Position numbers and translations under genes: made by a program. Under the pieces are notes generated by a model, which worked only from the letters and a program-made list of their open reading frames with translations, searched no databases and was not told where the DNA came from. Below are positions 58,799-63,686 of a DNA stretch of 64,000 nt, piece by piece; position 1 is the stretch's first letter, and each line of letters starts with the position of its first letter. This DNA is from a virus: positions 1 to 64,000 of IMG/VR virus record IMGVR_UViG_3300021963_000057, one strand, 5' to 3'.

Positions 58799-58827
58799 TT
58801 GACATGGCCTTCGGGCCATGTTATAAT
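58799..58827 (+). promoter_or_regulatory. Consensus early promoter whose spacer is a perfect hairpin
   Basis: TTGACA 58799-58804, 17-base spacer, TATAAT 58822-58827. The stem ACATGGCC / GGCCATGT with a TTCG loop (58802-58821) covers the last three bases of the -35 and the entire spacer. It drives gp44/gp62/regA. Confidence 0.85.
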
Positions 58828-60742: not shown

Positions 60743-61198
60743 ATGACAAATCTTATGAAAGATTTTTTCACGGCCGACAAAATGTTCAGCCAAATTCAAC
60801 CATTCAGTGTAGGATTCAACGACACGTTGGAACTTATGCGTGAAGCAGCAGCGGCCGCTGCATCTAAAGCCGTAGCATATCCTCCATACAACATCAAACA
60901 GGTAAAAGAAAACAAGTACGTCATTGAAATGGCAGTTGCTGGTTTTGCTAAGTCCGATATTGAGATGACTTTGGAAGGAAATAAACTTGTAATTAAAGCT
61001 GCATCTAAAGAAGATGATTCTGAGGAATATCTATACAAAGGTATTGCCAACCGTGCATTTGAACGCACCTTTACTCTCGCAGATAAAGTAGAAATCAAAG
61101 ATGCAGAAATGATGAATGGCATGCTTAAAATTTGGTTAGAAAACATGGTCAAAGTTCAAGATGCCGTTAAGAAAATTACTATTAAGGACAGCGAATGA
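60743..61198 (+). CDS. hsp20: Small heat-shock protein, Hsp20/IbpA-like
   Basis: 151 residues, TTAGGAG site. Residues ~45-140 form an alpha-crystallin domain: YPPYNIKQVKENKYVIEMAV, AGFAKSDIEMTLEGNKLVIK, YKGIANRAFERTFTLADKVE and NGMLKIWLENMVK (the I/L-x-I/L-type tail is weak). It resembles IbpA-type chaperones and is a frequent gene of T4-like cyanophages. It would hold unfolded proteins, perhaps during capsid assembly. The early promoter, nested late promoter and structured leader suggest expression throughout infection. Confidence 0.93.
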   Translation: MTNLMKDFFTADKMFSQIQPFSVGFNDTLELMREAAAAAASKAVAYPPYNIKQVKENKYVIEMAVAGFAKSDIEMTLEGNKLVIKAASKEDDSEEYLYKGIANRAFERTFTLADKVEIKDAEMMNGMLKIWLENMVKVQDAVKKITIKDSE

Positions 61199-61264: not shown

Positions 61265-61293
61265 AAAGAGGTTGCTTGACAACCTCTTTTTTT
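61265..61293 (+). terminator. Intrinsic terminator after hsp20 operon
   Basis: Perfect ten-pair stem AAAGAGGTTG / CAACCTCTTT, loop CTTGA, running into seven T residues. Its loop and 3' arm form the -35 of the next promoter. Confidence 0.93.
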
Positions 61294-61304
61294 ACCTGTA
61301 TAAT
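61276..61304 (+). promoter_or_regulatory. Consensus early promoter overlapping a terminator
   Basis: TTGACA 61276-61281 (terminator loop and 3' arm), 17-base spacer, TATAAT 61299-61304. The predicted start (~61311) coincides with the ATG of the next gene. Confidence 0.88.
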
Positions 61305-61493: not shown

Positions 61494-61568
61494 GGGCCTA
61501 TAGCTTAATGGTAAAGCAGTGAACTCATAATTCATTGAGTCTAGGTTCAATTCCTAGTGGGCCCACCA
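61494..61568 (+). tRNA. tRNA with anticodon CAT (Met, or Ile2 after lysidine modification)
   Basis: Complete cloverleaf of 75 bases including encoded CCA. Acceptor GGGCCTA / TGGGCCC, D arm GCTT...AAGC, anticodon stem GTGAA / TTCAT with loop CTCATAA, five-base variable loop, T arm CTAGG-TTCAATT-CCTAG, discriminator A. The C4-G69 and C5-G68 pairs are those used by TilS to recognise tRNA-Ile2 in E. coli, so it may read AUA rather than AUG. Confidence 0.95.
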
Positions 61569-61586
61569 TTTTTATTAAGGAGTATC

Positions 61587-62036
61587 ATGTCGATTACAAT
61601 TAAAAATCTTGAGAGTGCATTGGCTGGAGAAAGTCAGGCACATATCAAATATCGTTACTTTGCTAAGATTGCTCGTGAAGAAGGTCACGAAGAAATTGCA
61701 AAACACTTTGAACACACAGCTGACCAAGAATTGCTTCATGCATGGGGTCATTTGGAGTTGTTGATTGGTAAACCATCAACCAAAGAATGTTTGGAGAAAG
61801 CAATTGAAGGTGAAACATATGAGTTCACACAGATGTATCCAAATATGAAAGCAGAAGCAGAGTTAGAAGGAAATCAGGAAGCTGTTCGTGAAGCTGCACA
61901 TCAAATTGCAGAATCACAAACTCACGCTGAAGAATTCCGTGCAGTACTTGCTAAGGCAGAAAAACGTTTCGCTGCTTTGACTAAGATTGAAAAACGCCAT
62001 GCAGAAGCATATCAACAAAAATTGGGAGAACTATAA
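61587..62036 (+). CDS. Rubrerythrin (diiron domain only)
   Basis: 149 residues from the ATG at 61587 (TAAGGAGT upstream); a longer reading from 61557 would begin in the tRNA 3' end and is rejected. Ferritin-like four-helix protein with the rubrerythrin pattern ESQAHIKYRYFAKIAREEGH, then FEHTADQELLHAWGHLELL and later AHQIAESQTHAEEFRAVLAK, giving two ExxH iron motifs. Rubrerythrins reduce hydrogen peroxide with electrons from rubredoxin. The usual C-terminal rubredoxin domain is missing, but a separate rubredoxin gene starts on its stop codon. Likely protects against peroxide or scavenges iron during infection. Confidence 0.9.
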   Translation: MSITIKNLESALAGESQAHIKYRYFAKIAREEGHEEIAKHFEHTADQELLHAWGHLELLIGKPSTKECLEKAIEGETYEFTQMYPNMKAEAELEGNQEAVREAAHQIAESQTHAEEFRAVLAKAEKRFAALTKIEKRHAEAYQQKLGEL

Positions 62037-62170
62037 TGAGTGAAATACATGTGTGCGTAGTTTGTGGACATGAACATGATGAAGCAACAGAAGGTGCATG
62101 GAACACATTGCCTGATGACTTTATTTGTCCTGAATGTGGATGTGGTAAAGAAGATTACGAGGTCCTGTGA
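62036..62170 (+). CDS. Rubredoxin-like protein, 44 residues
   Basis: Short ORF with ATG overlapping the rubrerythrin stop by one base and GGGAGAA upstream. Two iron-binding CxxC motifs: CVVCGHEHDEATEG (first pair at residues 7 and 10) and ICPECGCGKEDYEV (second pair at ~32 and 35), with the rubredoxin signature LPDDFICPECG between. It matches the one-iron FeS4 rubredoxin family, slightly shorter than usual (~52). It probably donates electrons to the adjacent rubrerythrin. The GTGA at its end overlaps the next start. Confidence 0.88.
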   Translation: MSEIHVCVVCGHEHDEATEGAWNTLPDDFICPECGCGKEDYEVL

Positions 62171-62595
62171 AACAAAAATTTCGTGATGCGTATATGAAAG
62201 TGGCTGAGACATTCGCAGAATTGTCCTCGGCTGTTAGACTTCATGTTGGTGCCATTGTAGTCAAAGATGACAGAATTATTTCAATTGGTTACAATGGTAT
62301 GCCCTCAGGTTGGGATAACAACTGTGAGTATGAAGAAGGTGATGAGTTAGGTGGTTATTATTTAAAAACTAAACCTGAGGTGTTACATGCTGAAACAAAT
62401 GCGATTGCCAAGTTGGCTAAATCTAACGAATCTGGTATGGGTGCTACTATGTTTATTACCCATGCTCCATGTTTGGACTGTGCCAAACTTATCTACCAAA
62501 GTGGTATTAACCATGTTTTATACCGGAACTCTTATCGGAGTGATGATGGTATCAAGTTTTTGGAAAAAGCCTTAGTCACTGTGGAAAAAATCTAA
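62167..62595 (+). CDS. cd: dCMP deaminase
   Basis: 142 residues, GTG start overlapping the rubredoxin stop (GTGA), ACGAGG upstream. Zinc deaminase motifs LHAETNAI (His74, Glu76) and HAPCLDCAKL (Cys102, Cys105) are intact; the N-terminal VGAIVVKDDRIISIGYNGMP is typical of dCMP deaminases including T4 cd. It converts dCMP to dUMP for thymidylate synthesis, supporting AT-rich phage DNA. Co-translated with rubrerythrin/rubredoxin although functionally distinct. Confidence 0.93.
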   Translation: MKQKFRDAYMKVAETFAELSSAVRLHVGAIVVKDDRIISIGYNGMPSGWDNNCEYEEGDELGGYYLKTKPEVLHAETNAIAKLAKSNESGMGATMFITHAPCLDCAKLIYQSGINHVLYRNSYRSDDGIKFLEKALVTVEKI

Positions 62596-62638: not shown

Positions 62639-63157
62639 ATGATTATTCGTGTGGTTAACTGTCCGGATAGAGACTTCAAACCCTTTATAGAAAGGGCAGC
62701 ACAGTTTTACGCCAAGGAACTAATACCCAATACACGCATAAGAAACAACTGTACAACAGAAATAAAGTTCTGTACAAAGATTAATGAATATGGTTTTGCA
62801 AGTATTGAAGATTACAATACCAGAAAACAACCTCGAAAATTCTTAATAGAGATTCATCCCAACCTTGGTTCAAGAAGAATACTGGAAACACTGGCACATG
62901 AAATGGTTCATGTGAAACAATACATCGAAGGTGAAACCAATGATGAATTGACCAGATGGAGAGGTAAGAGAGTTGATCCAGACAAAATTGATTATTGGGT
63001 TCAGCCATGGGAGATAGATGCTTATGGTCGTGAACCAGGATTACTTACAAAGTTTGCAATATCGGAACATTTGTGGGAAGTATTTGATGATTTTGTTGAT
63101 CCTTCCGGTCCAATAAATTGTTATCCTATTGCATGGAAATTAAAGAATGTCAGTTGA
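62639..63157 (+). CDS. SprT-like zinc metalloprotease-family protein
   Basis: 172 residues, TTAGGAGACC site. The zinc motif HEMVH (87-91) in LETLAHEMVHVKQYIEGETN, a possible third ligand in WEIDAYGREPG, and a preceding strand KFLIEIHPNLGSRRI fit the SprT-like fold widespread in T4-like aquatic phages. The role is unknown; related host proteins act on DNA-protein crosslinks. The end overlaps the next gene by 11 bases. Confidence 0.78.
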   Translation: MIIRVVNCPDRDFKPFIERAAQFYAKELIPNTRIRNNCTTEIKFCTKINEYGFASIEDYNTRKQPRKFLIEIHPNLGSRRILETLAHEMVHVKQYIEGETNDELTRWRGKRVDPDKIDYWVQPWEIDAYGREPGLLTKFAISEHLWEVFDDFVDPSGPINCYPIAWKLKNVS

Positions 63158-63686
63158 AGCGGATAGATTTACTTACGGCCAAGGTAACATAAAGATTGTT
63201 ACAAATTTTCCAGGAAAAAAAGTCAAGTTAGGAAAATATTGTTCAGTTGCAGCAGATGTTCAAGCTTTTCTTGGTGGTAATCACAGAGTTGATTGGATAA
63301 CAACGTTTCCTTTTGGTCACATAAGCACAAGCGAAATCAATGTATCTAAAGTAGATGGACATCCAGGTACAAATGGTGATATCATTATTGGCAATGATGT
63401 TTGGTTAGGAACAGGATGTGTCTTAATGTCTGGTATAACAATTGGTGATGGTGCTGTCGTTGCTGCACATTCTCATGTTGTTAAAGATGTTGCACCTTAT
63501 ACTCTTGTTGGTGGAAATCCAGCAAAGCCAATCAAACTTAGATTCGAACAACATATTGTTGATGCATTAATGGAATTAAAATGGTGGGATTTAGATGTTG
63601 ATGTGGTAAAGTTAATCGTTCCGGTCTTGTGTGCTGAACCAAATTATGATACAATCCAAGACTTAATACAAAAATATAAAAAATAA
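63147..63686 (+). CDS. Hexapeptide-repeat O-acetyltransferase (CatB/XAT-like)
   Basis: 179 residues. Left-handed beta-helix repeats: VKLGKYCSVAADVQAF at the start, then IIIGNDVWLGTGCVLMSGIT, IGDGAVVAAHSHVVKDVAPY and TLVGGNPAKPIKLRF. The GGNHRVDW motif (43-50) contains the catalytic-type His46 of xenobiotic acetyltransferases, followed by TTFPFGHI. It transfers acetyl from acetyl-CoA to a hydroxyl group. In a phage, surface polysaccharide is a more likely target than an antibiotic. Last complete gene in the window. Confidence 0.87.
   Translation: MSVEADRFTYGQGNIKIVTNFPGKKVKLGKYCSVAADVQAFLGGNHRVDWITTFPFGHISTSEINVSKVDGHPGTNGDIIIGNDVWLGTGCVLMSGITIGDGAVVAAHSHVVKDVAPYTLVGGNPAKPIKLRFEQHIVDALMELKWWDLDVDVVKLIVPVLCAEPNYDTIQDLIQKYKK

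What the first reader, a model, noticed from the sequence alone, without database searches (positions are those of the whole stretch)
61587..62595. Split rubrerythrin / 44-residue rubredoxin redox pair fused into the dCMP deaminase operon
The rubrerythrin lacks its usual rubredoxin domain, and an independent tiny rubredoxin with both CxxC motifs starts on its stop codon. Its own stop overlaps the GTG of dCMP deaminase. An oxygen/peroxide-detoxifying pair in an obligately lytic-type phage suggests the virus maintains redox or iron balance in the infected cell. The rubredoxin is short enough to be skipped by standard gene callers. Seen: motifs and overlaps. Known: rubrerythrin reduces peroxide using rubredoxin. 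Inferred: an auxiliary peroxidase system.
Basis: partly seen in the sequence, partly recalled or inferred. Interest (0 to 1): 0.75.

Follow-up and report, generated by a model that had tools for sequence, protein, structure and literature searches.

The report
Phage-borne rubrerythrin–rubredoxin gene pair
This T4-like virus of bacteria carries two adjacent genes for a peroxide-removing iron protein and its tiny electron-carrier partner; the same pair is common in bacteria and in hundreds of environmental virus contigs, so it is a real but largely borrowed antioxidant kit rather than a new invention.

Summary
Window 61587-62036 encodes a 149-aa rubrerythrin without a rubredoxin domain. A 44-codon rubredoxin (62036-62170) starts on its stop codon, and a dCMP deaminase (62167-62595) overlaps the rubredoxin stop. 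The pair is conserved: 79 of 80 related viral loci keep the rubredoxin immediately downstream, and the one exception is cut by its contig end. All four Cys are invariant. The 'split' is not a phage invention. Of 80 bacterial relatives (mostly Burkholderiales), 77 have the same separate rubredoxin gene, and cyanobacteria have the two fused. A Vampirovibrio chromosome carries the phage-type overlapping pair beside a thiol-peroxidase-like gene. Best reading: a phage-borne 'cyanobacterial-type' rubrerythrin peroxidase plus rubredoxin, probably expressed early and reduced by host enzymes. dCMP deaminase is an incidental neighbour, immediately downstream in only 22 of 80 loci. The characterised cyanobacterial relative takes electrons from FNR, bypassing rubredoxin. 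And the whole subfamily replaces one canonical bridging Glu of the di-iron site by Ser (ES-x-x-H) and keeps a second invariant ExxH 26 residues later, so full chemical equivalence to classical rubrerythrin is not certain.

The parts
61276..61304 (+). Perfect sigma-70 promoter (TTGACA-17-TATAAT) upstream of the transcription unit; its -35 lies in the loop and 3' arm of a terminator hairpin (61265-61289)
   Evidence: 12/12 match; similar promoter about 310-410 nt upstream of rbr in most syntenic relatives, e.g. L003, L009, L011-L013, L016-L020, L025, L028, L058, L062, L071
61311..61493 (+). 60-aa ORF of unknown function, first gene of the unit
   Evidence: No Pfam/PHROG hit; homologue in 24/80 relatives
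61494..61568 (+). tRNA-Met (CAT) between orf60 and rbr
   Evidence: ARAGORN
61587..62036 (+). rbr: one-domain 'cyanobacterial-type' rubrerythrin, 149 aa, with extended helix D carrying ESxxH (109-113) and a second ExRH (135-138)
   Evidence: PF02915 4e-15; PDB rubrerythrins 2e-21; AF2 pLDDT 92 with Foldseek hits to 1nnq and sulerythrin; residue conservation
62036..62170 (+). rub: 44-aa short-loop rubredoxin, C7-x2-C10 and C31-x2-C34, start overlapping the rbr stop (TAATG)
   Evidence: PF00301 3.8e-7; PDB rubredoxins; AF2 pLDDT 90 with Foldseek to 2v3b, 6nw1, 6rxn
62167..62595 (+). dCMP deaminase (142 aa, GTG start overlapping the rub stop); neighbour, not part of the redox pair
   Evidence: PF00383, phrog_174; directly downstream of the pair in only 22/80 relatives

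Best explanation
The two genes are a phage-carried peroxide-reducing module. Rbr is a ferritin-like di-iron peroxidase of the 'cyanobacterial-type' group (Cardenas group 5, one-domain branch). Rub is its separate electron carrier. They are translationally coupled and probably transcribed early from a host-type sigma-70 promoter at 61276. During infection the pair would reduce H2O2 to water with host NAD(P)H, passed on by a host reductase (rubredoxin reductase or FNR) because none was found on the phage record. That would protect iron enzymes the phage depends on, such as its own class I ribonucleotide reductase, and the host cell until lysis. Shown: gene identity, fold, overlap, purifying selection, co-conservation, phage context, promoter match. 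Inferred: early timing, peroxidase activity, the rubredoxin-to-Rbr electron path, and the benefit to infection.
For: Family and structure matches. Pair kept in 79/80 viral loci, the exception being a contig end, with ligands and Cys invariant and purifying selection. The same two-gene arrangement occurs in 77/80 bacterial relatives, the three others being cut at contig ends, and as a fused Rbr-Rd protein in 27 cyanobacterial relatives, a Rosetta-stone link between the two. In Vampirovibrio (L117) the pair sits beside a thiol-peroxidase-like gene. Genuine phages: clamp loader, RegA, terminase, portal and scaffold on the window; T4-type prohead protease in all ten of the long relatives from G195 to G204. 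Relatives RbrA (PMC6616624) and ferriperoxin (PMC3317640) are demonstrated FNR-dependent peroxidases.
Against: The canonical helix-D bridging Glu is Ser in this subfamily, so the di-iron site may differ. Anabaena RbrA is reduced by FNR without its rubredoxin domain, so Rub may not be the donor. Rbr and Rub distances correlate only modestly (Mantel r 0.29; in the subset with dCMP deaminase, 0.22 against 0.37 for Rbr-deaminase). There are no expression or activity data for any phage member.
Confidence: 0.62

Rival explanations
1. Rbr is reduced directly by host FNR (as Anabaena RbrA is), and Rub serves another acceptor or acts as a spare donor. The two are co-selected, but Rub is not the main donor to Rbr.
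For: RbrA and ferriperoxin are FNR-dependent; FNR reduces RbrA's di-iron centre without its rubredoxin domain (PMC6616624; PMC3317640). Rub evolves faster than Rbr (dN/dS 0.23 against 0.14), and the distance correlation between them is modest.
Against: Rub was never absent or displaced in 80 testable phage copies (79 relatives plus the window) and 77 bacterial copies; it is fused to Rbr in cyanobacteria.
Confidence: 0.17
2. Iron or redox support for the phage's class I ribonucleotide reductase: Rbr removes peroxide or buffers iron so that NrdB's di-iron/tyrosyl radical is built and maintained, linking the pair to dNTP supply (dCMP deaminase next door).
For: NrdB on the window's record and in 12/12 long relatives carrying the pair; dCMP deaminase adjacent in 22/80 loci.
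Against: Class I RNR is near universal in T4-like phages (my knowledge; not tested on phages without rbr), so co-occurrence is weak evidence. Two clearly different score classes of NrdB occur with the pair. 39/80 loci share no other window neighbour within the fetched stretch.
Confidence: 0.13
3. The altered ligand set (Ser110 for the bridging Glu) and the second invariant ExxH mean this subfamily binds metal differently (other metal, second site, or storage/oxidase role) and is not a classical rubrerythrin peroxidase.
For: S110 invariant in 81 phage, 79 proteobacterial and 29 cyanobacterial-phylum sequences, where solved structures have Glu (B. pseudomallei E124, sulerythrin E126); E135/H138 invariant in the same sets.
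Against: A member, Anabaena RbrA, is reported to be an active peroxidase with strong activity (PMC6616624); E109 adjoins and may supply the missing carboxylate.
Confidence: 0.08

Closest known systems
'Cyanobacterial-type' (group 5) rubrerythrin, one-domain proteobacterial branch (Cardenas et al. 2016, PMC5114695), found here next to a separate rubredoxin gene
   Same: 57-66% identity to Burkholderiales proteins over the full length; no Rd domain; separate rubredoxin gene directly downstream; same ESxxH and second ExxH motifs
   Different: Phage genes overlap (TAATG) instead of a typical gap of about 25-135 nt; phage rubredoxin has 20 (or 17) residues between the CxxC motifs instead of 29. Assignment to group 5 is by my comparison; their network was not rebuilt.
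Vampirovibrio sp. chromosomal rbr-rub pair (L117)
   Same: 78% identity, same TAATG overlap, same short-loop rubredoxin (20-residue spacing); sister to the phage clade in the tree (100/100)
   Different: Located on a 1.49-Mb bacterial contig between a thiol-peroxidase-like gene and enolase; direction of transfer not resolved
Anabaena RbrA type (cyanobacterial fused Rbr-Rd; NADPH/FNR-dependent peroxidase, PMC6616624)
   Same: 45-51% identity of cyanobacterial fused proteins over the ferritin-like part, with the same motif pair; that RbrA itself is one of this type rests on the paper's description and my inference
   Different: Rubredoxin fused in one chain with a long loop; FNR delivers electrons without the Rd domain
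Pelagibacter phage Mosig rubrerythrin (MT647606)
   Same: A one-domain rubrerythrin in a T4-like phage
   Different: 38% identity, canonical ExxH in helix D (aerobic-type look), no CxxC-CxxC small ORF within the 8.4 kb examined: a separate acquisition
Rubrerythrin or rubredoxin-fold AMGs reported singly in viral surveys and Vibrio phages (PMC10146946, PMC10199544, PMC10671443)
   Same: The idea of oxidative-stress auxiliary genes in phages is already published
   Different: Single genes; no rbr-rub pair described in the passages read

Membership tests
Rubrerythrin (ferritin-like di-iron peroxidase) | Pfam PF02915 match over the gathering score, four-helix bundle | tested here: met
   56.8 bits against a cut-off of 22.8; AF2 four long helices, Foldseek best hits all rubrerythrins/sulerythrin
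Rubrerythrin (ferritin-like di-iron peroxidase) | Di-iron ligands: E (helix A), ExxH (helix B), ExxE (helix C), ExxH (helix D) | tested here: inconclusive
   E15, E48/H51, E76/E79 and H113 invariant; the helix-D bridging Glu position is Ser110 with Glu109 next to it, in all 81 phage and all bacterial relatives. No coordinates were available to measure the site
Rubrerythrin (ferritin-like di-iron peroxidase) | NAD(P)H-dependent peroxide reduction | not testable with these tools
   Known for relatives RbrA and ferriperoxin
Classical two-domain rubrerythrin (group 1) | C-terminal rubredoxin domain in the same chain | tested here: not met
   Stop codon at 62034-62036; rubredoxin is a separate ORF
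Cyanobacterial-type (group 5) rubrerythrin | Closest relatives are one-domain proteobacterial and fused cyanobacterial proteins; signature motifs shared | tested here: met
   (the published similarity network itself was not rebuilt)
Rubredoxin | Two CxxC(G) iron-binding motifs and rubredoxin fold | tested here: met
   C7, C10, C31, C34 invariant in all 80 phage copies; PF00301 30.5 bits against 23; Foldseek to 2v3b, 6nw1, 6rxn
Phage auxiliary metabolic gene | Encoded within a genuine phage genome and conserved in related phages | tested here: met
   T4-type core genes on the window; prohead protease on 12/18 related records, 10/10 of G195-G204
Phage auxiliary metabolic gene | Expressed and beneficial during infection | not testable with these tools
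   Only a consensus promoter and purifying selection as proxies

The most novel reading that the evidence does not exclude
The phage/proteobacterial/cyanobacterial subfamily has a remodelled metal centre (ES-x-x-H in place of ExxH in helix D) plus a second invariant ExxH on an extended helix D that may form an additional, inter-subunit metal or docking site. T4-like phages have spread this variant, with an overlapping mini-rubredoxin gene, as a standard antioxidant cassette.
Probability: 0.25. Interest if true: 0.6.

Novelty: new member of a known kind. Interest (0 to 1): 0.42.

Why it matters
It shows that peroxide detoxification genes are carried by many environmental T4-like phages (380 confirmed related stretches in IMG/VR by a pattern scan, a lower bound; records up to 355 kb), although only distant relatives (under 60% identity) of either protein exist among about 50,000 annotated phage records. 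If active, phages manage H2O2 during infection, which can be tested with two small proteins. It also exposes an apparently unremarked signature (ESxxH plus a second ExxH) shared by a whole rubrerythrin subfamily.

Tried and rejected
Phage-specific domain splitting: rejected, bacteria have the same split. Chance 44-codon ORF: rejected by conservation. Functional link to dCMP deaminase: weakened, adjacent in 22/80 loci only. Phage-encoded reductase: no Pyr_redox_2 or NAD_binding_1 match on the 104.6-kb record, which may be incomplete. Anaerobic RNR protection: no NRDD on the record. Alternative assignment of E135/H138 as the canonical helix-D ligands: disfavoured because AF2 gives one continuous helix 97-148 in which 109-113 should lie opposite E76/E79 (inferred from hairpin register, no coordinates) and the HMM alignment to solved structures is gap-free there. 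A distance-matrix test for co-transfer of rbr and rub was not decisive. The search for related loci with the 44-aa protein failed on length.

Full report
WHAT IS THERE. The window is part of a 104.6-kb T4-like phage record: clamp-loader genes, RegA, terminase, portal and head scaffold match PHROG families. At 61587-62036 lies a 149-aa rubrerythrin, at 62036-62170 a 44-aa rubredoxin, and at 62167-62595 a dCMP deaminase. The ATG at 61587 is the right rbr start: it has AAGGAG at 61577-61582, and the longer GTG alternative would begin inside a tRNA-Met.

IS IT REAL? A scan of IMG/VR with the Rbr confirmed 380 related stretches; the best 80 were fetched. In 79 a small rubredoxin ORF follows immediately, and the remaining locus ends 44 nt after the Rbr stop. 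Counting the window, the start overlaps the stop by one base in 72 copies, by four bases in 6, and is at other offsets in 2. All four Cys are invariant, and so are the Rbr ligand residues. Pairwise dN/dS medians are 0.14 for rbr and 0.23 for rub, though dS is high (about 1.1-1.2). AF2 models are confident (pLDDT 92 and 90) and match solved rubrerythrins and rubredoxins.

WHERE IT COMES FROM. The closest cellular proteins (57-66% identity) are mostly from Burkholderiales; 77 of 80 bacterial loci (one of them Vampirovibrio) have a rubredoxin ORF right after rbr, and the other three end within 200 nt of it. Cyanobacteria have the same protein with the rubredoxin fused at its C-terminus (27 of the 30 loci fetched, read). 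This matches group 5 of Cardenas et al. 2016, in which 42% of members lack the Rd domain (PMC5114695). So the separated rubredoxin is the normal bacterial state for the subfamily. One bacterial locus, Vampirovibrio L117 on a 1.49-Mb contig, has the phage-type version: 78% identity, TAATG overlap, 20-residue CxxC spacing. A thiol-peroxidase-like gene (my reading of its sequence, not a profile search) lies upstream and enolase downstream. In the tree the 58 distinct phage proteins group together (89/74, moderate) with Vampirovibrio as sister (100/100), on a long branch from betaproteobacteria. Direction of transfer cannot be told, and the phage sample is the best-scoring 80 only.

CONTEXT. About 34 of 80 viral loci share the window's clamp-loader/RegA neighbourhood; 39 share none of the nine tested neighbours except rub within the fetched stretch. 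dCMP deaminase directly follows the pair in 22. Of 18 long related records, 12 carry the T4-type prohead protease, including all from 106 to 355 kb in G195-G204. The pair therefore sits in several backgrounds and belongs with itself rather than with the deaminase. A distance-matrix comparison gave a modest Rbr-Rub correlation (r 0.29), not clearly better than Rbr-deaminase in the subset that has it; tight co-transfer is thus not proved. A perfect TTGACA-17-TATAAT promoter at 61276, overlapping a terminator hairpin, precedes orf60-tRNA-rbr-rub-deaminase and recurs in most syntenic relatives; early expression is inferred.

HOW IT PROBABLY WORKS. Relatives are peroxidases: Anabaena RbrA and Hydrogenobacter ferriperoxin reduce H2O2 with NADPH and FNR (PMC6616624; PMC3317640). 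No flavin reductase of the two tested families was found on the phage record, so electrons would come from the host. Whether Rub is the donor is inferred from its constant company and from the cyanobacterial fusion; against it, FNR bypasses the rubredoxin domain of RbrA. Protecting the phage's own class I ribonucleotide reductase (also in 12/12 long relatives) is possible but weakly supported.

In the gap-free alignment to solved rubrerythrins, the bridging Glu of helix D (B. pseudomallei E124, sulerythrin E126) is Ser110 in this protein, with Glu109 just before it. Ser110 is invariant in 81 phage, 79 proteobacterial and 29 cyanobacterial-phylum sequences; Glu109 is invariant but for one Asp. 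A second ExxH (E135, H138) is invariant too, although the spacing between the motifs differs by four residues in fused cyanobacterial proteins. AF2 puts both on one long helix (97-148), the second beyond the bundle by register. Either the site is completed by E109 or the subfamily binds metal differently; an experiment must decide.

NOVELTY. Closest published statements are single rubrerythrin or rubredoxin AMGs in surveys; no paper on the pair in phages was found in the library searched, which lacks most subscription journals. The annotated phage collection holds only distant relatives (below 60% identity). I file it as a new member of a known kind: a known bacterial rbr-rub pair now seen as a widespread phage cassette.

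Noticed in passing
window 61265-61304: A terminator hairpin (61265-61289) and a perfect sigma-70 promoter (61276-61304) overlap, so the -35 lies inside the hairpin; a similar overlap (promoter 58799-58827, hairpin 58800-58823) occurs before the clamp-loader genes.
   Followed up: partly
L117 2340-3590: A Vampirovibrio chromosome carries the phage-type overlapping rbr-rub pair beside a thiol-peroxidase-like gene, suggesting gene exchange between these bacteria and phages in one direction or the other.
   Followed up: partly
window 61911-62012 (Rbr residues 109-142): Invariant ESxxH plus a second invariant ExxH across the whole cyanobacterial-type rubrerythrin subfamily; function of the second motif unknown.
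   Followed up: partly
window 62639-63157: 172-aa ORF with an HExxH-like stretch (AHEMVHVKQ) and a weak match to a PHROG metalloprotease family.
   Followed up: no
window 63147-63686: Hexapeptide-repeat transferase (acetyltransferase-like) downstream, matching phrog_16087 of unknown function.
   Followed up: no
window 60743-61198: Phage Hsp20 small heat-shock protein just upstream; a homologue is found in 35 of the 80 related loci.
   Followed up: partly
L082 3986-4411 (Pelagibacter phage Mosig): A different, aerobic-type-looking rubrerythrin in another T4-like phage, without a rubredoxin ORF nearby: an independent acquisition.
   Followed up: partly
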